The notes beneath the pieces were generated by a model. The model made no database searches. It was not told where the DNA came from and worked only from the letters and a program-made list of their open reading frames with translations. A stretch of DNA of 35,293 bases from Candidatus Poribacteria bacterium (GTDB lineage Bacteria > Poribacteria > WGA-4E > WGA-3G), in contig JAJEAG010000023.1 of NCBI GenBank assembly GCA_022824265.1, positions 1-35,293 of the forward strand, read 5' to 3'. Position 1 is the stretch's first letter; each line of letters starts with the position of its first letter. Positions 3,730 to 23,142 of the stretch are shown in pieces. The translations under genes were made by a program, and so were the position numbers.

Positions 3730-3778
3730 TAAATGAGAATTGCATTGTTTTTTGACAATCTTAATAATGAAATTGTAT

Positions 3779-4024
3779 AATTAACAGAACTTACGCAAAA
3801 ATGGTAGGCGCGCTTTGATGAAGATTAATTTATTCTTTCGGTAATATTAATCTCCTAATACCTGTAGGCGCGCTTTGTAAGCGCGCTGGACTTCAATAGT
3901 AAATTACCGAATCTATTTTTTAATCTTCATGTAAGCGCGCTGGAAACTCAGAATTCTGCTGAAAAAAACACCATTTTAGTCATAATTATTGAAAATCGTG
4001 AAAAGTGCGTAAGTCCTGAATTAA
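3779..4024. mobile_element. MITE-like element with CAGRACTTACGCA-type termini
   Basis: CAGAACTTACGCA at 3785-3797 is matched by inverted TGCGTAAGTCCTG at 4006-4018 with one mismatch. The similarity extends outward through TAATTAA-like bases to about 3779 and 4024. The roughly 246-bp interior has no open frame and contains a GTAGGCGCGCTTTG...TAAGCGCGCTGGA hairpin that is itself split by the 113-bp element at 3818-3930. ACTTACGCA ends are common on small transposon-derived elements; I have not assigned a transposase family. Confidence 0.6.
3818..3930. mobile_element. 113-bp palindromic element, copy 2
   Basis: This is a near-identical copy of 961-1073 with the same length, ATGAAGATTAA...TTAATCTTCAT ends and central GCGCGCTTTGTAAGCGCGC. 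It is inserted inside GTAGGCGCGCTTTG | GTAAGCGCGCTGGA, a copy of the very hairpin the element carries at its own centre. The G on each side may be a one-base duplication. The termini are better matched here than in copy 1, so this may be the younger copy. Confidence 0.7.
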
Positions 4025-4064
4025 TTGAAAAATAACAAAACTTACACATAAGGTCCTTAGAACG

Positions 4065-4201
4065 TATCTCATAAATCACTTATAGGGGCGGGGTCTCCCC
4101 GCCCGATTAGAAGCACCCTTTCTATATGGGGCGAGGTTACCTCACCCCTACGATGAAAATATGATTTTCTGCCAGAGATCAGATAAACAATTTATGAGAT
4201 A
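4065..4201. mobile_element. MITE-like element with 12-bp terminal inverted repeats
   Basis: TATCTCATAAAT at 4065-4076 is the exact reverse complement of ATTTATGAGATA at 4190-4201. The interior contains GGGGCGGGGTCTCCCCGCCC and GGGGCGAGGTTACCTCACCCC hairpins and no open frame. The right end lies 36 bp before receptor 2, so the element probably contributes to its leader or promoter region. Confidence 0.55.
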
Positions 4202-4237
4202 GACTATAAAATAATAAAAGATACGGAGTCACTGGCA

Positions 4238-6505
4238 ATGAAAAATATTCTATGCCTAATAATGCTTCTTTTCCTACCTATTACTGCCTTTTCTCAAACA
4301 GGTACAATTGAAGGTACTGTTTATAGTAAAGACACGGATAAACCATTAGCAGGAGCAGAAGTTCAAATAATTGAGATTGACAAACGATTTATCACAGATG
4401 AAAATGGCACGTTTTCCTTCATAGAAATCCCTGAAGGTAAGTATACGTTGTCTATTACCTACCCAAATACTGAATTATCAGAAAAAATTGAGATAGTTGT
4501 AGAAACGGATAAGATCCTAACACCCACTATTTATGTTAGCACTAACGCTTATGAGCTTGAGGTAATTGAAGTAATTACGAAACGAACGCCTAAAACTGTC
4601 ATAAAAAAGAGCATTCAATCACAAGAAATTACACGACTACCCGGAACAGCAGGAGATGCACTGCGTGCACTACAAGCAATACCAGGTATCGGTGTAGCGA
4701 ATGATTTTAGTGGGGCACTCTATATTCGTGGCGGTTCCGATGAAGATAACCTCTATTATTTTGATCGTGTACCTGTCGGATATCCATACCACTTCGGTGG
4801 TCTCGTTTCATCTCTCAGTTCTGAAATCATCGACCGGATTGATGTCTACGCAGGGGGTTATGGAGCGGAATATGGTGTAGATTCTCAAGCAGTTATAGAT
4901 ATCTATTCTCAAAACAACAGTCCAGAAGCTCTAAGGGGAAAACTCAACCTAAATCTTTTATATTCAGAAGGATTACTTCAAGGCAAAATTGGTGAAAAAG
5001 GATTTTGGTATGCAGCTGGACGTAGGAGTTATATAGATTTATTTATCGGTTCACTGTCTTTCGCAACTGGAGCAATCACAGCATTTCCAAGATTCTGGGA
5101 TTACCAACTAAAGGCTGGCTATGATCTCACTGAAAAACATCAACTCTTTTTCAATCTGTTTGCATCGGGAGATAAATTCGCAGTTAAATTAGACGGTGAA
5201 AATGTGGATGAAGATTTCAGAGGAAATACCAGTTTTGAAAGCGGGTTTGAGGGTGCGGGGATTCACTTCCGTTCAGCCCTAACCGATAGACTCACCTCCT
5301 ATTTATCCTTAACTCGATCAAATTTCTTGTTTGATGTCAATTTCGGTCCTACAATCTCGCTTGAGATTGATGCACCAAACTACACCTTACGGGAAGATAT
5401 TACGTATGAGTTAAATGAAAAACATAGATTGGAGACGGGGTTAATCCTTGGACTTGAACCCGGTGAGGTGTCTGGAACATTCACACGTATCCCAGACGAG
5501 GGAGAAGTGGAGTTTGATATAAGGTTTGAGGAGAAGAACACTATAAACGAATCTGTTCTTGGACAGCGCATCGAAGGTTATTTGCAAGATAGGTATGATA
5601 TACTACCTTTTATGTCAATCGTGTACGGTGTCCGATTTGATTATTTCAACCGTGTGGATGAACTCTCGGTTCAACCGCGCGGCAGTATTCGGGTAGTACT
5701 TCCCAATACATCTGAACTTCAGTTTGCTTATGGAATATACAACCAGACTCCTATTCCCGCACAACTCTCATCAAGTGTTGGCAACCCTAATTTGAAGTCC
5801 AGTCAGGCAAGTCATTACATTGTTGAACTCAAACGTCAACTTTCACAGGATACAGAAATCAAAATTGCCGCTTATTATAAGGATTTGGCTAATTTAGTAA
5901 CTTCTGATATATCATCTATCTATCTTAATCAAGGTGTTGGTTATGCCCAAGGAACAGAGGTTTTTCTACGACATCGTAGTGGTGACAGGTTTTTCGGGTG
6001 GGTGTCTTATGCTTATGCGTTATCAAAGAGACGTGACCGTTTAGGTGAACCTTATCGGTATTATTCATTTGATCAAACACATGTCGCCACATTAGCGGTG
6101 AGTTATAACCTTACACCTACTTGGGAGTTTGGAGCAAAATGGCAATATCGAACTGGTAATCCGTATACTCCCGTCGTAGACGCGCAACTCGTTGTAGACC
6201 CAAGATTTGCTTTAGAAAAGGACCCAGAGGACATCACTATCACTGACTTTATCCAAAATTCTGTCTATATTCCAATATATGGTGAAACCAACTCAGAAAG
6301 ATTTCCTCCTTACCACAGGTTGGATCTACGTATAAGCAAAACCTTCCGATTTAACAGTTGGGAATTGGGACTTTTTCTGGAATTACTAAACACCTATAAC
6401 CGTAAGAATCTTCTTGATTATAATTATAATGAAAACTACACAGAGATAAACCCTATTTACCAATTCCCAATTATCCCATATTTAGGTATCACTGCCGAAT
6501 TCTAA
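4238..6505 (+). CDS. TonB-dependent receptor with carboxypeptidase-regulatory-like N-domain (receptor 2)
   Basis: This 755-residue paralogue of receptor 1 has a signal peptide at 1-19 (cleavage near FS-QT). A regulatory-like beta domain follows at 22-100, beginning GTIEGTVYSKDTDKPLAGAE. The plug is at about 110-220, with LYIRGGSDEDNLYYFD and YAGGYGAEYGVDSQAVIDI, then a barrel ending LGITAEF. Compared with receptor 1 it lacks two long extracellular-loop-like insertions, one in the first third of the barrel and one near 3080-3150 of receptor 1, which suggests divergence in ligand specificity. GGAG lies 9 nt before the ATG, a normal distance. The next receptor starts 22 bp downstream, so the two are likely co-transcribed. 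Transport role is a family inference; the cargo is unknown. Confidence 0.9.
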   Translation: MKNILCLIMLLFLPITAFSQTGTIEGTVYSKDTDKPLAGAEVQIIEIDKRFITDENGTFSFIEIPEGKYTLSITYPNTELSEKIEIVVETDKILTPTIYVSTNAYELEVIEVITKRTPKTVIKKSIQSQEITRLPGTAGDALRALQAIPGIGVANDFSGALYIRGGSDEDNLYYFDRVPVGYPYHFGGLVSSLSSEIIDRIDVYAGGYGAEYGVDSQAVIDIYSQNNSPEALRGKLNLNLLYSEGLLQGKIGEKGFWYAAGRRSYIDLFIGSLSFATGAITAFPRFWDYQLKAGYDLTEKHQLFFNLFASGDKFAVKLDGENVDEDFRGNTSFESGFEGAGIHFRSALTDRLTSYLSLTRSNFLFDVNFGPTISLEIDAPNYTLREDITYELNEKHRLETGLILGLEPGEVSGTFTRIPDEGEVEFDIRFEEKNTINESVLGQRIEGYLQDRYDILPFMSIVYGVRFDYFNRVDELSVQPRGSIRVVLPNTSELQFAYGIYNQTPIPAQLSSSVGNPNLKSSQASHYIVELKRQLSQDTEIKIAAYYKDLANLVTSDISSIYLNQGVGYAQGTEVFLRHRSGDRFFGWVSYAYALSKRRDRLGEPYRYYSFDQTHVATLAVSYNLTPTWEFGAKWQYRTGNPYTPVVDAQLVVDPRFALEKDPEDITITDFIQNSVYIPIYGETNSERFPPYHRLDLRISKTFRFNSWELGLFLELLNTYNRKNLLDYNYNENYTEINPIYQFPIIPYLGITAEF

Positions 6506-6527
6506 TAACATTACTTAGTAGGTATCA

Positions 6528-8600
6528 TTGAAACATATTTTTCTTATTTTTCTTATCATATTATCATTCTATGCTTTTGGACAAGATGATGACACAGCAA
6601 TTGACGAAACATCGGAAGACGTTGTAACCTTACCACCCGTTGTAGTCGAAGGGGAGCGAATTGAAAAGAAACCAAAACGCGCCATAACAGGTGATACGAT
6701 TACAAGTGCTGTAGGTACAGGTGGAGATCCACTTCGGGTTTTAGATAAACTACCGAGTGTCGGTGTACTGAACGATTTTGTCGGTATTCTTTCTGTTCGT
6801 GGTGGTGGACCTGAAGACAACATCTACTATTTCGATCGCTTACCGTTAGGATATCCCTATCATCTCTACGGAATCGTCTCTACCATGAACGCAGAAGTCA
6901 TAAATAATATAGATGTATACCCCGGTGGATACGGAGTAGAGTTCGGTTCCAACTCACAAGCGGTGATTGACATACATTCACGTTCAAGAACAGATAAACT
7001 TATCGGTGGAAAACTCAACCTAAATCCTGTATATTCTCAAGCGTTTTTTGAAGGAAGTATAGGGAATCGTGGATACTGGTATGTTTTCGGACGGAGAAGT
7101 TATATGGGTCCTCTGTTCGAATTGTTACCGATATTGCTGGAGATTGAGAACGACTTGGTAACCCAAGTACCCAGTTTCTGGAGTTACCAAGGTAAATTCG
7201 TCTATCAATTAACAAAAACACATAGATTAGTTGTAAACGCTCTTGCAGCTAACGATGTCGGTAAACTTCACTTTACATCTGATGAAGTGTCTGATAGTGA
7301 TTTGCGAGGTCCATTGAGTACAGAAAATCCATTTGATTCCCAAGGTATCCATTTCTATTCTGAGATAAAAGAAAGATTTAAATCAGTTGTGTCGTTGTCA
7401 CGTTCCTTTTCTCGTTCACATCTGGAATACGGGGATGGCTACTTATATCGGGATTCTGAAAGCACTTATTCTTTACGCGGTGATGTTCAGTATTGGGTAA
7501 AGTTTCCAAAGACACTGCTTGAATCAGGTTTTGATCTTTCAATCCTACCAACAAATCTTGTAAGTGTCGGTGCACGACCACTGGAAGAAGGTGATTGGGA
7601 TTTTGACTTCAGACTAAAACAAGATGGAGAAAAGATATATACTGACATATCCCAAGACATACATCGTATGGAAGGATATTTACAAGCAACTCAAGACCTC
7701 TTTTCTACACGTTATGCTGACCTTTATGCCACCTTAGGGGTGCGATCAACATATTACAATCATATAGAAAACTTTTCACTTCAGCCACGCGGGCTGCTCG
7801 GTTTAACCATTGGACCTGAACAAATCAACACTGTAGGATTTTCACTCCTACCCGTAGACATACGTTTTATGTATGGAAATTACGTTCAGAACCCGCATTT
7901 TTACCATATAGTATTGGGAAGAGAGAATCCAGACATTTCCCCAAGTCATGCAACACATTATGTTCTCACAATAGAAAAGAACCTTACCCATGAAACGAGA
8001 GTTGAAGTTGCAGGATATTACAAAAACCTTCATGATATGATTACTTACAACCTTACAGATAGACAATATGAGAATCAGCGAACTGGATCGGCGAAGGGAA
8101 TTGAGGTGTCCTTAGAACATGATTTCGGTGATGCGTTTCGAGGATGGTTAGCATACTCATATACGCTTTCCAAACGGCAAGATTCTACGAAGGATAAAGA
8201 AAGAGAGTTTATGTTTGGCACACCGAATGTTTTGTCTGTTGGACTGAATTACAAACTTGAGCCGTTTGAATTCGGTGCAAATTGGCAATTTAAGAGCGGG
8301 GTGTTATACGCTACTTTAGAAGATAGAGAACGTTATACAAATCCATTTACAAAAAATCAAACATGGATTCCAGTTTACGGAGAAATCGTCCGCTCCTCAC
8401 CATATCACCGCTTAGATTTACGCATTCACTATTCCATCCGATCGATTTTTGGGTTGAAAGGTGGATTGAACTTAGAATTTTGGAATGCCTATAACCGAAC
8501 GAATATATTGCAAGTACGTTATAACGCCAATTATACTAAAGAAGTCCCTGTTGCTCAATTACCGATAGTACCATTCCTTGCTTTGACTTTAGAGTTCTAA
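6528..8600 (+). CDS. TonB-dependent receptor lacking the N-terminal regulatory domain (receptor 3)
   Basis: The protein has 690 residues if translation begins at TTG 6528; no in-frame ATG precedes the hydrophobic signal sequence (LIFLIILSFYAFG). Unlike its two neighbours it goes from the signal peptide through a short acidic linker (DDDTAIDETSEDV) to VTLPPVVVEGERI and directly into the plug. The plug carries LSVRGGGPEDNIYYFD and YPGGYGVEFGSNSQAVIDI. The barrel ends FLALTLEF. The order of three shrinking paralogues suggests tandem duplication with loss of the N-domain in the last copy. The three plugs may share a TonB partner but recognise different ligands; that is inference. Confidence 0.88.
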   Translation: MKHIFLIFLIILSFYAFGQDDDTAIDETSEDVVTLPPVVVEGERIEKKPKRAITGDTITSAVGTGGDPLRVLDKLPSVGVLNDFVGILSVRGGGPEDNIYYFDRLPLGYPYHLYGIVSTMNAEVINNIDVYPGGYGVEFGSNSQAVIDIHSRSRTDKLIGGKLNLNPVYSQAFFEGSIGNRGYWYVFGRRSYMGPLFELLPILLEIENDLVTQVPSFWSYQGKFVYQLTKTHRLVVNALAANDVGKLHFTSDEVSDSDLRGPLSTENPFDSQGIHFYSEIKERFKSVVSLSRSFSRSHLEYGDGYLYRDSESTYSLRGDVQYWVKFPKTLLESGFDLSILPTNLVSVGARPLEEGDWDFDFRLKQDGEKIYTDISQDIHRMEGYLQATQDLFSTRYADLYATLGVRSTYYNHIENFSLQPRGLLGLTIGPEQINTVGFSLLPVDIRFMYGNYVQNPHFYHIVLGRENPDISPSHATHYVLTIEKNLTHETRVEVAGYYKNLHDMITYNLTDRQYENQRTGSAKGIEVSLEHDFGDAFRGWLAYSYTLSKRQDSTKDKEREFMFGTPNVLSVGLNYKLEPFEFGANWQFKSGVLYATLEDRERYTNPFTKNQTWIPVYGEIVRSSPYHRLDLRIHYSIRSIFGLKGGLNLEFWNAYNRTNILQVRYNANYTKEVPVAQLPIVPFLALTLEF

Positions 8601-10924: not shown

Positions 10925-12484
10925 TTAGTGTTCTTCAATTGATATATTCGCATGAAATGCGTTGATATTGCCTTTACCACTGAACCAAGTGCCAGTAGCA
11001 CCTAATTTAAAGACCATACCTTTGTCAAATTGGTATTGTATTGTTCCGCTTTGTCCTGAGGGAATATCCCAGACAGATGCAACTGCACCAGTTGGAATAC
11101 CTTCTGTTGGTAATTCTGTATCGCTATCAAATAGATCAAACGATCCACCAGAAATTGCACTACCCATCCGTATATCAATATTTAGTGTGCCACCATTTTT
11201 ATAAGTTGTGGCATCTATTGTAATGACATTGTAATCTTGTTCTCCGTGTCTTGGCGCGCGAAGAATATGTAGAACCTCTGCCTCATGATGTTCCCTATCA
11301 AGGACAATATTTGCACCTGTCAACATAGGATCCGATGTGTTCTCACCAAAACCGGGGAATTTGGCATCTAATGAGTCGTTTAGAAAGGTAAGATATCCTT
11401 CCTCATCTGAAATTCCACTTCTATAACAGTCATCAAAGAAATCATTCAACTGGAGTTTTCCCATCACATCAAATTCTGGAGAAATAACCAAGCAATCCAC
11501 TGGCGAATGCTCTGTCCAACCCTCCATGATGGGTTTGGCAAATGGATGCGATCTATCAAACGCATTTGGTAAATCCTTTCGCCTTACTGCCATGTATGCT
11601 TTCTTTCTGGGTGTGCGTTCTAATTCAACATTGGAAACCCATACATTGATGAATTTATCATTCAAGAATTCAATAACTCCGTCATCAGAGAGGACACCTG
11701 CCCTCAAACCTTTTCCGCTTCCTCAGCAGGACTCATCACGCAACGGACCGTCTATTGAAATAACATGGATTAATTTACCTTGGTCTTCTGCCAGTTTTGA
11801 TGCTTCAAAAGGAGATATCCAGTTAATTTGCTCTGATTTGTAGAAACATAACGCCAGTTTGCATTCTGCTTCTTCATGTGTAATGTATTCTGGGTATTCT
11901 GTGCTATTCACAACATCTTGTGTTTCCACTGTTAATTCCATTTTGGAGCAAAAACCTGCGTCAGTACTACTGTCCCAATTGATGTCAACGTTCACTGTGC
12001 CATCAGGAACGGACATCTTGAAGAAAACAACTTTCTCTTCAATTTGGTCAATTATGAGATTTCCAGAAAACTGTGAGGGTGTGAACCAACCACCATCTAA
12101 CTTGAATTCAGCGTGTATGCGAAACTGTATGTCTGCGAATCTATCGTTATATGCACGTAGGCATGCCCACAATCTGCTGGAGTCCCCAGAGTCAATATGC
12201 ATATCCAAATTTGGATTAGGATTAAGTTGACGGAGTAATTCCAAAACACCTGTTTCTTCTACCTGCCAACAATCACCTACTGAAACAGATTCTGAGGGCA
12301 AAAAGCTTTGAAAAACCGAAGTCGGATATCTCTTCTCTGGTTCAGTCACCTGTAGATTTACCAATTCATCCCACTCTATATGAAAGTGGGACAATGTATG
12401 CTCCATCGGTACAATGAACCCTTTGACAGATACTACTCTATCTCTATTGAGATTTAGGTTGATTTTGTTTTGTAAGATACTCAA
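10925..12484 (-). CDS. selN: Selenoprotein N homologue 1 (UGA-encoded Sec254)
   Basis: I read one 519-residue protein through UGA 11723-11725; conventional reading gives halves 11723-12484 and 10925-11707. The frame across the UGA is D-E-S-C-U-G-S-G-K-G-L-R. The first half carries SELENON-family blocks such as FRIHAEF, FTPSQFSGNLIID and NWDSSTDAGFCSKMEL. The thioredoxin-like core runs from INWISPFEASKLA through the SCUG site to FINVWVSNVEL and SPVDCLVISPEF, where the Pro fits the thioredoxin cis-Pro. A C-terminal beta domain lies at about 390-519 and includes GSFDLFDSDTELP. The start is TTG 12484, preceded at 5 nt by AAGGAAGG and touching the stop of copy 2. This is the last gene of the array. 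No signal peptide is visible, so it should be cytosolic. The redox role is inferred from the animal family. Confidence 0.88.
11690..11705 (-). promoter_or_regulatory. bSECIS-like hairpin of copy 1
   Basis: On the coding strand it reads GAGGGC-AGGT-GTCCTC: six pairs including one G-U wobble. It starts 17 nt after UGA 11723-11725. Confidence 0.75.
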
Positions 12485-14095
12485 TTAACCTTCCTTTACA
12501 GTTATTGTTGCGTGAAATGCGTTGACACTTCCTTTTTCACTGAACCAGTTGCCGGTAGCACCTAACTTAAAACGTTTGCCTTCCTCAAAACGATACTGGA
12601 TTTTACCCGTTTTACCTTTTGGAATATCCCATGCAGAGGCAAGTGCTTCAGTAGGAACACCTTCGATAGGTATATCGCTATCACCACCAAACAGATCAAA
12701 CGAACCTGCAGGTTCAGCATTCCCGACCTGAATATCAATGGTAAGCATACCACCATCTTTTATCTTTGTTGTATCAATTTCAATGATAGTGTAGTCTTGA
12801 TAACCGTATTCAGGTGTTTGAAATATGTTCAAAACGTGCTGACTTAAATGTTTGGGATTGAGTTCAACATTTAATCCGTTAACCTTACTCACTTGAACCT
12901 TTTTCGCTATGTTGAAAAAAGCGTTCCAATCAATAGTATGCGATGCATAACCGTTATTATCCAAGCCAGGATTTTGACCTGATAGTGCAGCCTGAATAAA
13001 CTTTCGATACGACCTACCACTACCTTTAAATTCGTTGATTGGTAAGCTTCCCAACACCTCAAAGTCAGCAGAAATAACCATACAATCTACAGGTGAATGT
13101 TGATGCCATCCCTTCATAATTGCTTTGGTAAATGGAAGTGTTGTGTCATAACCTACTGAATCATCTGGGTAACGCTTTGGAAAGTATTCTTTATTGACAT
13201 CAGTTCGTTTTAGTTCTACATTGGAAACCCAGGTGCTAATAAGATTTTCATTTAGGAATTCGATGGTCTTATCATCAGAGAGAGCAACTGCTCTCAAACT
13301 TTTGCCAGTCCCTCAGCAGGACTCATCTTTGAGAGGACCATCAATTGAAATAACATGAATAGGTTTTTGTTGTGTTGCTGCTAATTCTATTGCTTCTTCA
13401 AACGACACCCAATTTATTTCTTCAAACTTGTAGAAACAACGCATTAGCTTCTTATTTATTTCATCTTGAGAGATAGATTCTGTAAATTCTATGTCTTTAA
13501 GTATATTTAGATTGTCAGAATGAAGTTCCATTTGTGAACAGAAACCGGAATCAATAATGCTATATGGTTTATCAGGATATTTTCTCCACGCAACATCAAA
13601 GTTCACTGTGTCCTCTGGAACATACATCTTGAAATAAGCAACTTTTCGTTGAATTCGGTCTATAATCAGGTATCCAGTAAACAGCGATGGAGTAAACCTT
13701 CCGTCATCAAACATAAACTCTGCATGTAGACGAAATTGGATGTCAGCGAACTTGTCGTTATATGCACGCAGACATGCCCACAATCCACTTGAATCCCCTG
13801 CGTCAATTGACATTTTCAGGTTAGGGTTAGGGTGTATCTGTTGAAGCAACTCCATTACACCCGCTTCATCAATCTGCCAAACATCACCAACTGAAATTGA
13901 TTCATTTGGGAGAAAAGATTGGAAAATTGAAGCCGTGTATTCCTTTTCAGGTTCCGCAATTCGTAAATTTGCCAATATCTCCCATTCCACATGAAAGTCG
14001 TTTTGTGTAAGTGTAATTGGTGCGATATTGCCCTTGACAGTAATAGTGTGTTTAGGGTTAAGGTTGAGTATGATATTGCCTGATTGTGTATTCAT
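12485..14095 (-). CDS. selN: Selenoprotein N homologue 2 (UGA-encoded Sec261)
   Basis: This 536-residue protein reads through UGA 13313-13315; the conventional halves are 13313-14095 and 12485-13297. The site is E-S-C-U-G-T-G-K-S-L-R, with Thr where most copies have Ser. After the UGA it reads LRAVALSDD, the only copy with Ala at that Val position. This substitution belongs to the compensatory change in its hairpin. The core ends at FEVLGSLPINEF, and an insert (YASHTIDWNAFFNIAKKVQV) precedes the C-terminal beta domain with GSFDLFGGDSDIP and LGATGNWFS. ATG 14095 directly follows the TAA of copy 3, and GAGGAAA overlapping that gene's end serves as ribosome binding site. Its TAA is directly followed by the TTG of copy 1, so the genes are probably translationally coupled. 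Confidence 0.88.
13280..13295 (-). promoter_or_regulatory. bSECIS-like hairpin of copy 2 (covarying)
   Basis: Coding strand GAGAGC-AGTT-GCTCTC: six Watson-Crick pairs, 17 nt after UGA 13313-13315. Relative to GAGGAC/GTCCTC in other copies, stem pair 4 changed from G-C to A-U and pair 5 from A-U to G-C. Both sides changed together. Confidence 0.8.
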
Positions 14096-16126
14096 TTATT
14101 TTTCCTCAACAGATATATTAAGTTGAAATGCGTTTATATTGCCTTTATCACTAAACCAATCCCCTGTAGCACCGAGTTTAAACACTTTTCCCTTCTCAAA
14201 TTCATGTGTGATTCTATCTGTCTCACAGGGCAAGACTCCCCAAGCAGAAACGAGGGCATCTGGTATACCTTCAGTTGGGAGTTCATCGTCCTCATCATAG
14301 AGATCAAACGACCCAGCGGGTTCAGCACCACCAACTTCAATATCAATGATTAACACCCCTCCACCGTCAAACGCAGTTGTGTCTATATTGATAACGTTGT
14401 AATCCTGATAACCACCTCCAGGTGAACGAAAAATATCTAATACTTGCTGTGTTTGATTTTCTTTGTTAAGAACAATGTTCAACTCCGTTGGAGTATCTTT
14501 GCTTATTTCAGTCTCATTCGTCTCTATGGATTTCATTTTACCCTCCACTGCAGTGATTTTTGCGACAAAAGCGTTTATACCACCTACTCCACCCCATTGA
14601 TCTCCAGTAGCGCACAATTTAAAACGTTGTCCTTTTTCAAAATCGTATGTTATTTGATGAGTATTGCCGGGGAAAAGACCCCAATAGAATTTCAATGGAT
14701 CAAGAACCTTTAAATATTCATCACTCTGCTGACTGTGCCAAACATCAGGATCAATACCATCGGGAACATTTTCGTTAGGTATTTTCTTATTTTCATCCAG
14801 AAGAAAAAATAATCCGACTGCACTATCACGACCAGCTTGGATTTCAATATTAAGTGTGCCACCATCTCTAAACGCTTTGGTATCTATAACAACAACGGTA
14901 TAATCCTCATGTGCCTTTTTTGGCGTGCGAAATGTGTCTAACACCTCTTGTGATGGTTGATCTGGGGTAAGGATAATGTCATTCAGTCCGGGTCGTTTAT
15001 CTTCCAATGAATCCTTGAGAAACTGCATGTATGCAATAGGTTCATCTTCAGGTCTTTTCATTTTGTCGAGGAATTCATTGTAGTCAACACTTCCCATCAA
15101 TTCAAAATCAGGTGAGATAACGAAACAGTCTACCGGTGAACCTTTTACCCATCCTTTCTTAATAGTGTTAGCTAAAGCGTGCGTTGAATTGAATGTCGTC
15201 CCTTCACGTTTACGTCTTTTTGCAATTGGGTCTTGTAAGCTGCCTGTTCGTCCCAATTCTGCATTTTCCACCCATGTATTGATAAAATTGTCGTTCAAAT
15301 AATCAATTATGTTGTCTTTAGAGAGGACACCTGTCCTCAAGCATCTGCCGGTCCCTCAGCAAGACTCGTCAAAAAGTGGTCCATCTAATGAAACAACATG
15401 TATCGGTTTTTGCTGAATCTGTGCTTGTTTAAACGCTTCCTCCAGTGTAACCCAGTTAATCTGGTGAAACCTGTAGTAGTGCGAAATTAGTTTACTTTCT
15501 GCTTCTTCTTGGGTTATTGATATAGCGAATTCAACATCAGTAGGGTATGTACCAGTAGATAGTTCAAGTCGTGGACAATAACCTATCTCCGCATAGTAGT
15601 TCCCATTCTTTTGCTTCCAACCGGCATCAAAATTAAGAGTAGTTTGCGGGACAAACAACTTGAAGGACACCATACTCTCTTGAATTCGGTCTATTACTAA
15701 ATGTCCAGTAAATTGTGAAAGTGTCAATTTACCGTTTTTCATGATAAATTCTGCATGAATACGGAACACGATTTCAGCAAGTTCGTCATTGTAAGCACGT
15801 AGGCATGCCAATATTCCACGATAGTGACCTTCATCACTATTCAGTCTAAGTTTCGGATTAGGATAAAGTTGTCTTAGTAATGTTAGTGCACTTTCCTCTC
15901 CAATCTGCCAACAATCACCTACAGAAACTGGATCGGTTGGGAGAAAGGATTGAAAAACGGATGTAGGATACTGTTTCTCAGGTTCAGCAACGCGCAGATT
16001 TGCCAATTCATCCCATTCAACGTGAAAGTTGTATTGTGTGTATTCAATCGGTTCAATGAATCCATTGACTAATATACTATCATTTTCATTGAGGTGGAGT
16101 GTTATTTTGTCTTGTAACGATTTCAT
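14096..16126 (-). CDS. selN: Selenoprotein N homologue 3 with two C-terminal domains (UGA-encoded Sec257)
   Basis: This is the largest member at 676 residues, reading through UGA 15356-15358 (halves 15356-16126 and 14096-15340). The active site is E-S-C-U-G-T-G-R-C-L-R, with Arg in place of Lys and an additional Cys five residues after U. Arg also occurs here in human SELENON as I recall it. After the core it carries two beta domains in tandem. The first (about 405-530) has VGLFFLLDENKKIP and resembles that of copy 6. The second (about 550-676) has GSFDLYDEDDELP and LGATGDWFSDKG, resembling copies 1 and 2. A short hydrophilic linker (MKSIETNETEISKDTPTE) joins them. ATG 16126 touches the UGA stop of copy 4. 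Confidence 0.88.
15323..15338 (-). promoter_or_regulatory. bSECIS-like hairpin of copy 3
   Basis: Coding strand GAGGAC-AGGT-GTCCTC: six Watson-Crick pairs, 17 nt after UGA 15356-15358. The loop AGGU is the same tetranucleotide I recall in the apical loop of the E. coli fdhF SECIS. Confidence 0.78.
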
Positions 16127-17707
16127 TCATTTTCCTCTATAGAAAATAGAAAATTTCGTGTAAAAAGCGTTAGTATACGGTTCATCATCATCCCAATAAC
16201 GCGTAACAACTAACTTAAAAAGTTGTCCATGATTGAAACTATACTCAATTTGTCGTTTGTCACCGGGTTCTCCCCATGTCCACGCAAGGCTACCTTCTTC
16301 CGATACTTCCTCTTCTGCGGGTAGTTCGAAATCCTTATCAAACAGATAGAATGCACCTTCCCCATCTTCTCTACCAACGACAATATCAACTGTTAATGTT
16401 CCACCGTTTTCAAAAGACGTTGCATCAATGATTATAATTGTTAAGTTTTCATTGTCAACTGTTGGAGTGCGGATTAAGTCTGAGACCTCTTCTATAGGAT
16501 TCTCTTTTGTGAGAACAAGATTACCTAAACCTGGATGTTTTCCTTTCAAGGCTTCCTTGTAGAATGTTAGGTAATACTCAGCACGTCGGTGTCTACTGTA
16601 CTTAATATCTTCGCTGAGTTCATTAGCGGGTTGCCTACCCATTAGCTCAAACGTTGGCGATATAACCAAGCAATCCACCGGTGATCCTTTTTTGGATCCG
16701 GTTTTCCACCCCTTGATAATCGTTTGTGCTAAGGGGTGCGTTGTGTCAATTGTCTTATCCTCGCGTTCGCGTCTTTTAGCAATCGGTTTCCGCAAACTAT
16801 GGATACGTCCTAATTCACAATTGGGTACCCATGTGTTAATAAAATTGTCATTCAAAAATTCGATGATTTGATCATTAGAGAGGACACCTGTCCTCAAGTA
16901 TTTCCCGCTCCCTCAGCAGGATTCGTCCAAGAGCGGACCGTCTATTGAGATAGCATGGATCGGTTTCTGTTGTGCCGGTGCCATCTCCAACGCTTCTTCC
17001 AGCGATACCCAATTAATTTGCTGCGATTTGTAGAAGCAGAGACTCAATTTGTGCTCCACTTCTTCTTGTGTAATAGATTCAATGAATTCAGTGTATTGCC
17101 CAACGTTTTTTATGCCAGCACGGAGTTCCATTTGCGGGCAGAAGCCGCTATCCGTAATATGACCCTCCTCGTCTGGATCAATCTTCCATTTAGCACCAAA
17201 GTTTATGGTGCCCTCAGGGACGTACATCTGAAAGAAGACAACTGACCTTTTAACTCTATCAATAACAAGATGCCCCGTAAATTGGGAAGGCGTGAACCAA
17301 CCATCCTTTAGGTCAAATTGCGCATGGATGCGGAACACAATGTAAGCGAATTCAGTGTCGTAGGCGCGGAGGCATGCCCACAAGCCTTGAGATTCGGTTT
17401 TGTGGGGCGGCAGCTCCGCACGCATACCCAGAGATGGATTGGGATGGAGTTGTCTCAGCAACTCCATAGCACCGGTGTGCTCAATCTCCCAAGGCGTACC
17501 GACAGTGACGGTTCCTTTCGGAAGAAAGTCGCAGAAAATTGAGGCAGGATACTGTTTTTCTGGTTCAGCAACGCGCAGATTTGCCAGTTCATTCCATTCA
17601 ACGTGAAAGTTGTATTGAGTATATTCAATCGGAGCGATAAATCCTTTGACAGACACTTCTGCATCACCGTCAAGATTAAGAGTAATTTTATTTTTTAACG
17701 TTTTCAT
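16127..17707 (-). CDS. selN: Selenoprotein N homologue 4 (UGA-encoded Sec265)
   Basis: The 526-residue protein reads through UGA 16913-16915 (halves 16913-17707 and 16127-16897). The site is E-S-C-U-G-S-G-K-Y-L-R. It has a charged insertion (KTGSKKG) before SPVDCLVISPTFELMG that is shared with copy 7. The C-terminal domain is a divergent type with GAFYLFDKDFELP and LAWTWGEPG, again closest to the first domain of copy 7. The gene ends at UGA 16127-16129 right before the ATG of copy 3. No comparable hairpin follows that UGA, so the same codon acts as stop and as Sec within one gene. ATG 17707 follows a 126-bp spacer, the only sizeable gap in the array, which contains a promoter candidate. Confidence 0.88.
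16880..16895 (-). promoter_or_regulatory. bSECIS-like hairpin of copy 4
   Basis: Coding strand GAGGAC-AGGT-GTCCTC: six Watson-Crick pairs, starting 17 nt after UGA 16913-16915. Confidence 0.78.
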
Positions 17708-17802
17708 TCTTCGTTATGAATTTCCTTTTCGGTATAGGATACCATTCCCATCAGAAGGTGGCAATGAGTTGCTTATACACGTTTTTGGATGCACTTATAC
17801 CA

Positions 17803-17831
17803 ATTATGTCGTCTCAATGAAGCCTTGTAAA
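17803..17831 (-). promoter_or_regulatory. Sigma70-like promoter inside the selN array
   Basis: On the minus strand TTTACA (17826-17831) and CATAAT (17803-17808) are separated by exactly 17 nt. It lies in the only long gap of the array and would drive copies 4 to 1 with a leader of about 90 nt. A weak hairpin, CATTcCCATC-agaa-GGTGGcAATG at 17743-17766, lies in that leader. Confidence 0.45.
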
Positions 17832-17833
17832 TG

Positions 17834-19519
17834 TTACATTGATTCGGGCTTTTCTGCTAGTTCCACAGAAATTCTTGCTTGAAAGGCGTTAACATATTCT
17901 TCTTTATCTGACAGTTCGGCAGGGGCGATAGCGAGTCTAAAAACTCGACCTCGGTAGAAAGGATAAGTAATTTGCCGCATTCCCCCAGGCGGAACATCCG
18001 TAGCATTGGCAATAGACTTGTCGTAACGTTGTCCACGTTCTGCGGGGAATTCGATATCGCCATCATACAAATAGAACGAACCTGCAAGTTTGGTACTTCC
18101 GAGGCGTATATCAACTGTGAGTATTCCACCCTTTTCAAAGGGAGTAGCATCAATTGTTACCATAGTGGATTGCTGATAACGAACCTCCAGAGTTCGGATT
18201 ACATCTAATACTTCCAACATAGGCTGCATAGGGTTGATCACAACATCCAAATCTGTTAAGAAGGGTTCAAAAGGACTCTCTTGATCGGGGGTATCTTCTT
18301 CCTCACCTAATAGATAAGCGAAAGAATTATCAGCACTAAACCCGGGATATTTCCCTTCTAAGGCTTCAATGAGAAAGAGGCGGTAATTTTCTGCCCTTGT
18401 CCTTCCGCCATCCCAGTCATGTCCTCCGTAAAGGAATTTATTCAAAGCGAGTTTACCCCTCAATTCAAACTCAGGTGATATAACAAAACAGTCCACAGGT
18501 GAGCGTTCGTGCCATCCACTCTTGATTGCTTGTGCTAACGGATGGGTAGTGTCAAACGCTTTAGATTCGCGGGTGTATCTTTTGGCAAGGTATTCTCGCA
18601 CACTCGGCTTCCTACCTAATTCAAAATTAGACACCCATGTGTTGATAAAATTGTCGTTCAAGAATTTGATGACGCGTTCATTGCCGAGGACAACTGCCCT
18701 CAAATCTTTACCGCTTCCTCAGCATGCCTCATCGGTGAGAGGACCATCCAGAGAAATGACATGAACAGGTTTCTGTTGTGCCGGTGCCATTTCCAATGCT
18801 TCCTCTAACGATACCCAGTTAATTCGTTGTGATTCGTAGAATCTCAGTATTAGGGAACGCTCTGCTTCTTCTTGTGTGATTGCTTCTGTGAATTCGGTGT
18901 TTTGTAGAACATCTTGTGTTCCAGCACGGAGTTCCATTTGCGAGCAATAGCCGCAATCTGTAATCCATCGGGGAGCGTCCCAACCTTCTAATGTCGTTTC
19001 CCAATGAACGTCAAAGTTAAGTGTGTCTGCGGGGAGGTACATCTGAAAGAAAACAATAGTCTCTTGTGCCCGATCAATAATGAGATGTCCAGCAAACTGT
19101 GAGGGTGTAAACCAACCGTCGGTTAAGGCAAATTCCGCGTGAATGCGAAACACGATGTGAACGAATTGATTGTTGTAAGCACGCAGACATGCCCAAAGAC
19201 CTTTAGCTTCTTCTATGCCATACATCTCCACACGCATTTCCAAAGAAGGATTGGGATGAAGTTGTTTCAGTAGTTTCTGGACACTGTCTTGTTGAATCTG
19301 CCAGCAATCACCTACTGAAACTGCCTCGGTTGGAAGAAAATCTCGAAACACAGACGTAGAATACTGCTTTTCTGGTTCTGCAGCGCGTAGATTCGCCAAC
19401 GCATCCCATTCCCTATGAAAGTTGCCTGCGGTATGCTCAATCGGTGCGATGAAGGCTTTGACCGATACATCTGCATCCCCAGCAAGATTAATTGTGATTT
19501 CGTTTGGTAACGTCTTCAT
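17834..19519 (-). CDS. selN: Selenoprotein N homologue 5 (UGA-encoded Sec267)
   Basis: This 561-residue protein reads through UGA 18719-18721 (halves 18719-19519 and 17834-18703). The site is E-A-C-U-G-S-G-K-D-L-R; Ala replaces the Ser before Cys, as in copy 6. The family blocks are intact: GLWACLRAYNNQ, FRIHAEFAL, FTPSQFAGHLIID, CGYCSQMEL, INWVSLEEALEMAPAQ and SPVDCFVISPEFELRG. An extra acidic stretch (LLGEEEDTPDQESPFEP) separates the core from the C-terminal domain. That domain is the most divergent of the array (GSFYLYDGDIEFP, NATDVPPGG). It ends with a short unique tail (AEKPESM). GAGGAAGA 6 nt before ATG 19519 supports the start. Only 2 nt separate it from the stop of copy 6. Confidence 0.88.
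18686..18701 (-). promoter_or_regulatory. bSECIS-like hairpin of copy 5
   Basis: Coding strand GAGGGC-AGTT-GTCCTC: six pairs with one G-U, starting 17 nt after UGA 18719-18721. Confidence 0.75.
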
Positions 19520-19521
19520 TA

Positions 19522-21060
19522 TTAATCTTCCTCTACTGTGAACTTTGCTTGATAAGCATTAACGTTTCCCTTTTCGTTAGATGCCCATCCCATACCTACC
19601 AATTTGTAGATTTGACCTTTTTCAAAACGATGCATCATCTGACCAATTTCGCGTGGATCATACCAACCAATATCATGTGCGCCATCAAACATATTAGCAT
19701 CTGGTCGTTTGTTATCAGCATCAAAGGAAAGTTTATGGTCTGCATCAAGCAGGAAGAATGAACCGTATGCTTTGTCGATTCCCAATTCCATATCAATAGT
19801 GAGTGTGCCGCCGTTTTCAAACGCTGTAGTATCAATCACAACAACGGTGTATTCCTGATGTCCGTATTCAGGAGTGCGAAATACATCCAATACTGTTTGT
19901 GATGGTTGGTCTGGTGTGAGGAATATGTTACCTAATCCAGGTAGTTTCGCTGCTATAGCATCCTTGAGAAACAACAGGTAATTCTCACTTTCCAGAGTGC
20001 CGTCTTCACGTCTGTTTTCTCCAAGATAATCATTGACAGGGATATGTCCTATAGTCTCAAGTTCAGGTGTAATTATCCATGTATCTACTGGTCCCCTACG
20101 CCATTTATTACTGACAATAGTCCGTGCTAAAGGCGGCATTTGCTTATGTCCCATAGTTTCAAGCAAACGTTTCAACTCAATAGTACGTATCCATGTATTG
20201 ATGTAATTTTCGTTTAGATAATTTATTATTCGATCATCGGAGAGGACAACTGCCCTCAAGTTTTTTCCGCTCCCTCAGCACGCCTCATCATCAAGAGGTC
20301 CAGCAATTGAAATAGCGTGGATCGGTTTCTGCTTTGCTTGAGCAATTTCGTAAGCCTCCTCAAATGGGACCCACTGAATTTGCTCTGATTTATAGAACTG
20401 CTGTATAAGTATGTGTTTTGCTTTTTCTTGAGAAATGAACGTTGTGTATTCTGTATCTTTTAGGTAATCTTGTGTCCCACCTTGTAGATGAATTTGCGGA
20501 CAAACACCGCCAGCAGTGCTATAACCAGCATTGGGATCGTCTTTATCTTTCTTCCAATTGACATCAAAACTCTTACCTTCTGGAACGTGCATTCGGAATG
20601 ATACGACATCCTCATTAGTTCGATCAATAATCAGATCACCTGCAAAGTGTGAAGGGGTGAACCAACCATCTGTTAATGCAAATTCTGCGTGGATCCGAAA
20701 CACAACATGTGCATGTTGATCGTTGTAAGCAAGTAGAGTCGCCCACAAACCAGAAGAATCTCCAATATCAATATGCATATTCAGATTAGGTTCAGGATTT
20801 AGTTGTTGAAGTATCTTCATTATGCCAGTTTCGACAATCTGCCAGCATTCACCGATAGCGACAGGATCGTTAGGAAGTAAGGCATTAAAATCAGTAGCAC
20901 AATACTCCTTCTCTGGCTGATGAACCCGCATATTCCGCAATGCATCCCACTCTTCGTGGAAATTAGGACGCATATCCTCAATTGGTGCGATGTAACCTTT
21001 TACGCTTAATCTATTATTACTTTTCAGATTAAGCGCGATTCTGTCTGTTGGTGTATCCAT
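19522..21060 (-). CDS. selN: Selenoprotein N homologue 6, shortest member (UGA-encoded Sec262)
   Basis: This 512-residue protein reads through UGA 20275-20277 (halves 20275-21060 and 19522-20259). The active site is E-A-C-U-G-S-G-K-N-L-R. It is the most divergent copy in the core. The otherwise conserved Cys of GLWACLRAYN is Thr (GLWATLLAYN), and SPVDCFVIS is GPVDTWIIT, so two conserved cysteines are gone while the Cys-Sec pair is kept. The stretch after FINTWV is shortened, with no Arg/Lys-rich AKRRERE block. The single C-terminal domain (GSFFLLDADHKLS) resembles the first domain of copy 3. ATG 21060 immediately follows the UGA stop of copy 7. Confidence 0.87.
20242..20257 (-). promoter_or_regulatory. 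bSECIS-like hairpin of copy 6
   Basis: Coding strand GAGGGC-AGTT-GTCCTC: six pairs with one G-U, starting 17 nt after UGA 20275-20277. Confidence 0.75.
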
Positions 21061-23064
21061 TCAATTCTCCTTTACTGAAATATCCGCTTGAAAAGCGTTT
21101 ATTCTACCTTTCCTACTAAACCAATCCCCTGTAGCACCAAGTCTAAATAATTTGCCCCTTTCAAAATGATAGGTTATACTGTCTTTCTGTCCGGGTTTAA
21201 TATCCCATGCTGAAACAAGAGCATCTCTCGGCGTGCCTTTTGTAGATAATTTTTTGTCAGCATCAAATAGGTCAAACGAACCTGACGCGTCTTGATTCCC
21301 CACTTGGATATCAATCGTTAGAGTGCCACCATCTTCAAATGCCATTGTATCAATACTCAGAACATTATAATCCTGATTACCATAACCAGGGGCACGAAAA
21401 ATATCTAATACTTTCTGAGATGGTTGTTCTCTTTCAAGAATAATCTTTATACCAGTTGAATGTGTTTCTGAAGAATGTGCATTAGGGTTTTCTTCTACGG
21501 AAATTTTTGCGTAAAATGCGTTGGTATAAGGCTTTTCTGCATCCCATTCTCCAGTAACGATAAACTTAAAAAATTGTCCCTGCACAAATTTATACTTTAA
21601 CTGACATGTCTCACCAGATTCACCACACGTCCATGCAAGGTTGCTTTTTGTTGCTATTTTTCCTTCTTTTGGGATTATGAAGTTCTCGTCAAATAGATAA
21701 AACAATCCATATCCTTCTTCTCGACCAATCAGAATATCAATAGTTAATGTTCCTCCGTTTTCAATTGATCTTGCATCAATATTGACTAATGTGACTTTAT
21801 GATTGTCAACTAAAGGAGACAGAAAGATGTCAGACACCTCTTGAGAAGGATTATCACAGGAGAGAACAATGTTTCCCAATCCTGGTTGTTTTCCTTCTAA
21901 TGATTTATTGAGAAAGTCGAGATAATACGATTCCTCTGAAGGAAGACCTTTATTTCTACGGTCATCGTCAAGATCATTAACCAGTTGTCTACCCATCAGT
22001 TGAAAATCTGGTGAGATGACGAAACAATCGACTGGAGAACCTTTTTTCGTCCCAGTTTTCCACCCCTTAATAATTGCTTTTGCTAACGCATGATCTGTGT
22101 TGAATGTTATTCCTTCCCGCAAGCACATTTTGGCAACCGCTTCCCGCATACTTGGGATACCTCCCAATTCTACATTTGGCACCCATGTGTTGATAAAGTT
22201 TTCGTTCAAAAACGCAATGATCTCTTCATCGGAGAGGACACCTGCCCTCAAGCTTTTACCACTTCCTCAGCAAGATTCGTCTGCGAGCGGTCCGTTAATT
22301 GAAATTGCATGAACAGGTTTCTGTTGCGCGATTGCCATTTCCAATGCTTCCTCCAACTTTACCCAGTTAATTTGCTCTGATCTATAGAAACGGAGGATAA
22401 GATTCTGTAATGCTTTTTCTTTTGTGATGGATTCTACGAATTCAATATTTTGGGTATTCCCATCATTGTTTGTCCAAAGTTCCATTTGTGGACAGTACCC
22501 CATATCTGTATACCAAGCAAGTTCGTTATTGTTATATCCTGCTTCTGACGTATGCCAGTTCACATCAAAATTGATGAGTCCTTTTGGAACGTGCATCCGA
22601 AAGAAACGGATGTTTCCTTTACTTCGGTCAACAACAAGGTTTCCCTGAAATTGAGATGGAGTGTACCAACCGTCCTTTAGTTTAAATTCTGCGTGAATAC
22701 GGAATTGGATGTCGGCAAGTTGATTGTCGTAACCACGGAGACATGCCCACAGTCCACAAGAATCTCCAGCATCCAAGTGCATATCCAAATTGGGTTCTGG
22801 GTGGAGTTGCTTCAGTAATTCCAACACACCAGCCTGTTCAATTTCCCAAACATCACCGACAGAAATAGGATGTTTAGGCAGGAAATCGCAGAAAATTGAA
22901 GCAGGATAATGTTTTTCAGGAACAGTAACGCGTAGGTTTGCCAAAGCATCCCACTTAACGTGGAAGTTGTAGTGTGTGTATTCAATCGGTGCGATGTAAC
23001 CTTTGACGGATACTTCTGTATCATTATCAAGATTAAGCGTGATTTTGTCCGATACCGATTTCAT
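21061..23064 (-). CDS. selN: Selenoprotein N homologue 7 with two C-terminal domains (UGA-encoded Sec266)
   Basis: This is the first gene of the array, with 667 residues through UGA 22267-22269 (halves 22267-23064 and 21061-22251). The site is E-S-C-U-G-S-G-K-S-L-R. I chose ATG 23064 (MKSVSDKITL, like MKSLQDKITL in copy 3) because GAGGAG lies 6 nt before it; an upstream in-frame start at 23097 lacks this support. Two C-terminal domains are fused in tandem. The first has LFYLFDENFIIP and LAWTCGESG (copy-4 type). The second has GSFDLFDADKKLS and LGATGDWFS (copy-1/2 type). Both lie after the core, joined by a linker with NAHSSETHSTG. A 78-bp gap without a clear promoter or terminator separates it from the HAD gene upstream. 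Confidence 0.88.
22234..22249 (-). promoter_or_regulatory. bSECIS-like hairpin of copy 7
   Basis: Coding strand GAGGGC-AGGT-GTCCTC: six pairs with one G-U, starting 17 nt after UGA 22267-22269. Confidence 0.75.
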
Positions 23065-23142
23065 CTCATTCTCCTCAACAATTTTAGAACTTACCACCTA
23101 TACGCTATTTCGGATGCAGTTTTTGGATAATAATAAAAAATA

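What the first reader, a model, noticed from the sequence alone, without database searches (positions are those of the whole stretch)
11706..22269. Silent codon changes between UGA and the hairpin show that this segment is translated
The four codons after UGA vary as GGA/GGG, AGC/AGT/ACT/ACC, GGA/GGC/GGG/GGT and AAA/AGA while the peptide stays G-(S/T)-G-(K/R). If the second half started at its apparent TTG, these codons would be untranslated and free to drift. No ribosome binding site precedes that TTG, which itself overlaps the hairpin stem. An automatic annotation would report fourteen genes where there are seven.
Basis: seen in the sequence. Interest (0 to 1): 0.75.

Follow-up and report, generated by a model that had tools for sequence, protein, structure and literature searches.

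The report
Seven selenoprotein genes in sponge symbiont
Seven neighbouring genes in a sponge-associated bacterium each carry a stop codon that the cell almost certainly reads as the rare amino acid selenocysteine, and the proteins look like distant bacterial cousins of an animal muscle-disease protein, selenoprotein N.

Summary
The segment between UGA and the hairpin is translated. The seven ORF pairs are seven genes of one family, each with one in-frame UGA read as selenocysteine (Sec). Of 183 sites of the family found with an upstream anchor alone, 182 have UGA, 1 has UCA, none UAA, UAG or a Cys codon; 182 of 183 keep frame and spacing to the next motif. Codons +1 to +4 evolve with pN/pS 0.10; the hairpin codons show suppressed silent change (pS 0.19 against 0.5 to 0.8 elsewhere). 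The hairpin meets published bacterial SECIS rules in 167 of 181 sites, 7 of 7 in the window. The genome has SelA, SelB, tRNA-Sec and SelD. The organism is a Poribacterium. The proteins match no Pfam or NCBIfam model and no family of a 2026 review; they hold a DsbH-like thioredoxin domain with an SCUG motif. The best lead is homology to animal selenoprotein N, tested only against letters recalled from memory. Sec decoding: near certain. Kinship: probable.

The parts
10925..12484 (-). gene 1, 519 codons, UGA(Sec254) at 11723-11725, hairpin 11690-11705
12485..14095 (-). gene 2, 536 codons, UGA(Sec261) at 13313-13315, hairpin 13280-13295
14096..16126 (-). gene 3, 676 codons, UGA(Sec257) at 15356-15358, hairpin 15323-15338; C-terminal domain doubled
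16127..17707 (-). gene 4, 526 codons plus TGA as its true stop, UGA(Sec265) at 16913-16915, hairpin 16880-16895
17834..19519 (-). gene 5, 561 codons, UGA(Sec267) at 18719-18721, hairpin 18686-18701
19522..21060 (-). gene 6, 512 codons, UGA(Sec262) at 20275-20277, hairpin 20242-20257
21061..23097 (-). gene 7, UGA at 22267-22269 (Sec277 counted from the GTG), hairpin 22234-22249, true stop TGA; likely start is ATG 23064 with GAGGAG before it; C-terminal domain doubled
11708..11722 (-). five translated codons between UGA and hairpin in gene 1 (same layout in the other six)

Best explanation
Each pair of ORFs is one selenoprotein gene. The ribosome reaches the in-frame UGA; the 6-bp hairpin with an AGGU or AGUU loop, 23 nt downstream, acts as a bacterial SECIS that recruits SelB with Sec-tRNA-Sec(UCA), so UGA is read as Sec and translation runs on through G-S/T-G-K/R and the hairpin into the second half. 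The product is an oxidoreductase with an N-terminal beta-rich domain, a DsbH-like thioredoxin domain whose redox site is S-C-U-G, and a C-terminal beta-sandwich. It most likely works as a thiol/selenol reductase of protein disulfides, and is probably homologous to the Sec domain of animal selenoprotein N. Shown by computation: frame, selection, hairpin, machinery, fold of the model. Inferred: SelB binding, Sec insertion, reductase role, kinship with selenoprotein N. The confidence below is for Sec decoding; for the kinship it is about 0.7.
For: 182 of 183 sites UGA, constant frame and spacing; pN/pS 0.096 in +1..+4 and suppressed pS in the hairpin (22 stricter representatives); stem pairs formed in 97.3% of cells against 63.5% (sd 1.1) in 200 synonymous randomisations, MFE -8.70 against -2.36 in 40, with pairs changed on both sides at 21-36, 24-33 and 25-32; bSECIS constraints met in 167 of 181, 5 of 910 control windows; own SelA, SelB, tRNA-Sec, SelD; SelB in 60 of the 64 genomes with the family; TGA also the true stop in 69 of 174 family ORFs, so no reassigned code; thioredoxin domain 218-375 matches DsbH 2ju5, Z 12.8, rmsd 2.8 over 121, and thioredoxin-like chains again in a second model.
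Against: No Cys homologue was found, although the review PMC13188914 says nearly all selenoproteins have one. 14 of 181 sites miss a bSECIS rule, all on energy. The inner TTG has SD-like pairing, so additional internal initiation is not excluded. No protein or ribosome data. Selenoprotein N kinship rests on recalled letters and on a few positions from papers; no EF-hand was found.
Confidence: 0.95

Rival explanations
1. Split genes: UGA stops the first half and the second half is a separate protein started at the TTG by reinitiation.
For: TTG in all 7 window genes and SD-like pairing upstream of it.
Against: Start codon absent in 41 of 113 relatives; codons +1..+4 under strong purifying selection; Cys before UGA kept in 113 of 113; a split would cut through the thioredoxin domain.
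Confidence: 0.02
2. UGA is read as some other amino acid, by a changed code or plain readthrough.
For: The in-frame TGA is kept in nearly all members.
Against: TGA is the true stop in 69 of 174 family ORFs; tRNA-Sec, SelA, SelB, SelD present; SECIS-like hairpin.
Confidence: 0.02
3. Pseudogenes or assembly errors: the TGAs are real breaks.
For: Draft metagenome-assembled genomes.
Against: 64 of 84 genomes of the phylum have the family; the TGA-site pattern occurs in 64 and its reversed control in 0 of 84; selection continues after the TGA.
Confidence: 0.005
4. On function and kinship: a DsbH-like thioredoxin selenoprotein family of bacteria with no special tie to selenoprotein N; the SCUG likeness is convergent.
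For: PF03190 (Thioredox_DsbH) matches 3 of 29 members weakly, best E 0.0018; DsbH 2ju5 and ER protein Rp19 1sen match the fold; no record of selenoprotein N could be compared.
Against: A recalled selenoprotein N stretch scores E 2e-26 (Z set to 1e5) against the family profile A2, with 0 of 200 shuffles reported; a lead only.
Confidence: 0.25

Closest known systems
Bacterial SECIS-dependent selenoprotein genes (decoding as in E. coli formate dehydrogenases)
   Same: UGA, hairpin with its loop 16-37 nt downstream and G in the first two loop positions, SelA/SelB/SelC/SelD (rules from PMC13188914, passage)
   Different: Seven paralogues in a row; no Cys homologue found
Selenoprotein N (SELENON/SEPN1) of animals
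   Same: SCUG motif, Sec in a thioredoxin-like domain, basic residue at +4 (human Sec462 and Arg466: PMC8967691, passages); profile match to a recalled stretch
   Different: No EF-hand found, no ER targeting; extra C-terminal beta-sandwich in the window's genes; SECIS inside the gene; many copies per genome
DsbH / DUF255 thioredoxin domain (PF03190; PDB 2ju5)
   Same: Fold of residues 218-375, Z 12.8
   Different: Adjacent C-U redox site; sequence match only marginal
119 prokaryotic selenoprotein families or subfamilies of Table 1 in PMC13188914
   Same: Many are thioredoxin-like and a few have a CU motif
   Different: None is listed as selenoprotein N or with this architecture (whole table read)

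Membership tests
bacterial selenoprotein gene | in-frame UGA with conserved coding sequence on both sides | tested here: met
bacterial selenoprotein gene | bSECIS: loop 3-9 nt, stem 4-16 bp, G in first two loop positions, 16-37 nt from UGA, MFE <= -7.5 | tested here: met
   7 of 7 window sites, 167 of 181 in all; 14 fail on energy, one of them also on stem length; 5 of 910 control windows pass
bacterial selenoprotein gene | SelA, SelB, SelD and tRNA-Sec in the same genome | tested here: met
bacterial selenoprotein gene | Sec shown in the protein | not testable with these tools
   needs mass spectrometry or selenium labelling
selenoprotein N | SCUG motif | tested here: met
   position -2: S 69, A 43, G 1; -1: C 113; +1: G 107, A 6, of 113; all seven window genes have CUG, five with S and two with A before it
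selenoprotein N | thioredoxin-like domain around Sec | tested here: met
selenoprotein N | sequence homology to recorded selenoprotein N | not testable with these tools
   no record available; recalled letters only, positions from PMC8967691
selenoprotein N | EF-hand calcium-binding domain | tested here: not met
   no EF-hand model among the Pfam matches of 7, 29 and 19 proteins
selenoprotein N | membrane anchor, ER lumen | tested here: not met
   the window's N-termini show no hydrophobic stretch (read by eye); some paralogues elsewhere have a signal-peptide-like start
Thioredox_DsbH PF03190 | match over the family's threshold | tested here: inconclusive
   3 of 29 members, best E 0.0018; cut-off not shown in that table

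The most novel reading that the evidence does not exclude
Poribacteria hold a bacterial branch of selenoprotein N, strictly Sec-containing in all but one member seen, multiplied to as many as 14 Sec sites per genome. A 2020 paper places selenoprotein N among additions at the base of the animals (PMC7016017, passages). A homologue in a phylum of sponge symbionts would make gene exchange between symbionts and early animals, or a much older origin of the core, directly testable.
Probability: 0.6. Interest if true: 0.85.

Novelty: new variant of a known kind. Interest (0 to 1): 0.68.

Why it matters
It adds an uncatalogued selenoprotein family that ordinary annotation would cut in two at every member, with a tandem expansion and no Cys form found. 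If the selenoprotein N kinship holds, it offers small bacterial relatives of a human myopathy protein (no solved structure matched the family by sequence), and a route to that protein's origin.

Tried and rejected
Reassigned TGA: rejected, TGA is a true stop in 69 of 174 family ORFs. Rfam and tRNA scans of the window: nothing. Pfam and NCBIfam: no family. PDB by profile: no relative up to E 1 (A1) or 10 (A2) beyond chance matches. Foldseek of the whole model was filled by beta-sandwich matches to the C-terminal domain; the VIA second look brought out the thioredoxin domain. Relatives outside Poribacteria: none in plasmids or viral contigs; the one genome-contig scan listed 73 loci, all Poribacteria, but it was a close-relative search. 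Neighbour genes: leuC, leuD and HAD-like genes recur beside the array, which shows synteny but no functional partner (gene names recalled from their sequences). Literature: 'Poribacteria' with 'selenoprotein' 0 papers, with 'selenocysteine' 2 papers, neither on this; 'SelN-like' and similar phrases 2 papers, judged irrelevant from the search listing; subscription journals and preprints are not covered, so a prior report is not excluded.

Papers: PMC13188914 passages and section 7 parts 1-2; passages only of PMC5649159, PMC9999580, PMC12839072, PMC4807772, PMC10298544, PMC7016017, PMC8639696, PMC8584023, PMC8148124, PMC6955215, PMC8967691; PMC7474598 outline with abstract, and passages. Others: search listing only.

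Full report
What is there. On the minus strand, 10925-23097, seven frames follow each other with gaps of 0, 0, 0, 126, 2 and 0 bases. Each is open from a start codon with a Shine-Dalgarno-like stretch to a stop and is broken by exactly one in-frame TGA. The ORF finder reports 14 ORFs. Around the TGA all read D-E-(S/A)-C-U-G-(S/T)-G-(K/R)-x-L-R. The seven are homologous: gene 1 is 46 to 55% identical to the other six, and an eighth copy lies elsewhere in the genome at C15:106312-107862. Genes 4 and 7 end in TGA as a true stop.

Whose genome. The genome-contig search gave 73 loci, all titled Candidatus or uncultured Poribacteria. The closest locus is 81% identical to gene 4, while genes within the array are about 50% identical to each other, so the copies are older than the split of these species (inference).

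Is the segment between UGA and hairpin translated? With an anchor that uses only the protein sequence before the UGA, I found 183 sites in 75 sources (73 loci, the eighth gene's locus and the window): 182 TGA, 1 TCA (L047), no TAA, TAG, TGC or TGT; the downstream motif lies in frame 0, 20 codons on, in 182 of 183, and the last one (L013) only fails the motif pattern. One site was dropped for want of flank; 181 with TGA gave 113 representatives under 90% identity. Uncorrected pN/pS: codons -40..-16 0.263; -15..-1 0.196; +1..+4 0.096; +1..+5 0.273; hairpin codons +6..+11 0.492; +12..+16 0.528; +17..+30 0.159; +31..+59 0.533. Position +5 is variable in residue, so the constraint is on G-S-G-K, not on the whole spacer. 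In 22 representatives under 75% identity +1..+4 gives 0.097 (bootstrap 0.041-0.142); in the seven window genes alone 0.128.

The alternative start. Only 72 of 113 relatives have ATG, GTG or TTG at +6; in 33 the next in-frame start is at +20, beyond the redox motif.

The hairpin. Pairs 21-36 to 26-31 (1 = U of UGA) form in 112, 113, 113, 103, 106 and 113 of 113 sequences; loop AGGT 76, AGTT 35, ACGT 2. Pairs changed on both sides occur at 21-36 (T-A, C-G, one each), 24-33 (A-T, 9) and 25-32 (A-T 10, T-A 2). With the protein kept and codons drawn from the family's own usage, 63.5% of pairs form (sd 1.1, 200 runs) against 97.3% observed, and the mean energy is -2.36 against -8.70 (40 runs). pS in the hairpin codons is 0.191 against 0.5 to 0.8 elsewhere. 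The published bSECIS rules (PMC13188914, figure legend) are met by 167 of 181; the 14 misses are on energy; 5 of 910 control windows pass. Distant members keep UGA and a hairpin; in five of them (L134, L135, L147, L150, L151) the loop is shifted by one base in the fold.

Machinery. SelA on C85, tRNA-Sec with anticodon tca on C34, SelB beside it, SelD with an in-frame TGA of its own on C8. In 84 genomes of the phylum, 64 have the family, and a DNA pattern of the Sec site hits 64, its reversed control 0; up to 14 sites per genome (G053, G080), 8 in this one. SelB is found in 60 of the 64 and in 16 of the 20 without the family; the four family genomes without SelB are 73, 81, 83 and 94% complete. 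So Sec decoding is general in the phylum and the family is a part of its use.

The protein. No Pfam, NCBIfam (release 20.0) or PDB sequence relative. AlphaFold models have mean pLDDT 84.1 and 82.5. The thioredoxin domain (218-375) matches DsbH 2ju5, Z 12.8, rmsd 2.8 over 121, and ER protein Rp19 1sen, Z 10.7, rmsd 2.3 over 113; in the second model 3f9u Z 11.6, 1sen Z 10.7, 2ju5 Z 10.0. The C-terminal domain resembles PliG (Z 12.7, rmsd 2.9 over 113) and the collagen-binding domain of ColH (Z 10.7, rmsd 2.5 over 104), beta-sandwiches whose likeness shows no function. Several distant members lack it. The N-terminal domain was not resolved by these searches.

Selenoprotein N. The motif struck me from memory. 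What papers give: human selenoprotein N has Sec in an SCUG motif in a thioredoxin domain, numbered Sec462, with Arg466 in disease variants (PMC8967691), that is +4, where the family has K 106 or R 7 of 113. A stretch recalled from memory scores E 8e-19 against profile A1 and 2e-26 against A2 (Z set to 100000), with 0 of 200 shuffles and not the reversed copy reported up to E 1000; split in three, the motif part scores 7.5e-08 (A1) and 2.2e-07 (A2), the part before it 0.096 and 2.4e-05, the part after it 1600 and 29. The tail alone therefore gives no support. As the letters are recalled, this remains a lead. The family lacks the EF-hand, so I do not file it as selenoprotein N, but as a family that probably shares its Sec domain.

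How it would work. Inferred: SelB with Sec-tRNA binds the AGGU/AGUU hairpin, UGA is read as Sec, and the C-U pair reduces protein disulfides. The window's copies have no signal peptide by eye; some paralogues do, so there may be cytoplasmic and exported forms. Why so many copies are kept is unknown.

Verdict. The finding is right in substance, with one wrong side argument. The decoding mechanism is known; the family, its array and its possible tie to an animal protein are what is new here.

Noticed in passing
L047:4426-4428 (+), same gene in L141: One family member has UCA (Ser) in place of UGA and Glu at +1, with the hairpin intact and meeting all bSECIS rules: a recent loss of Sec or an assembly error.
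   Followed up: partly
L034, L037, L039, L040, L041, L043, L131: Signal-peptide-like N-termini in many paralogues; hydropathy flagged 46 of 174 ORFs, 12 printed, 11 of those N-terminal.
   Followed up: partly
codon before the UGA, all members: The Cys codon before UGA is TGC in 112 of 113, and the 21-nt window that starts 6 nt before the UGA folds more stably than synonymous controls (-4.39 against -2.59): a possible second element.
   Followed up: no
G000:C8:37723-38649 (L096): SelD of this genome itself has an in-frame TGA.
   Followed up: no
window 1222-8600: Three consecutive ORFs that look like TonB-dependent receptors (recalled likeness, no search run), beside the array.
   Followed up: no
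window 14096-14491 and 21061-21474: The C-terminal domain is doubled in genes 3 and 7.
   Followed up: no
G000:C15:82290-83048 (L002): A second SelA-like match, E 1.4e-12, over the cut-off; more likely another PLP enzyme.
   Followed up: no
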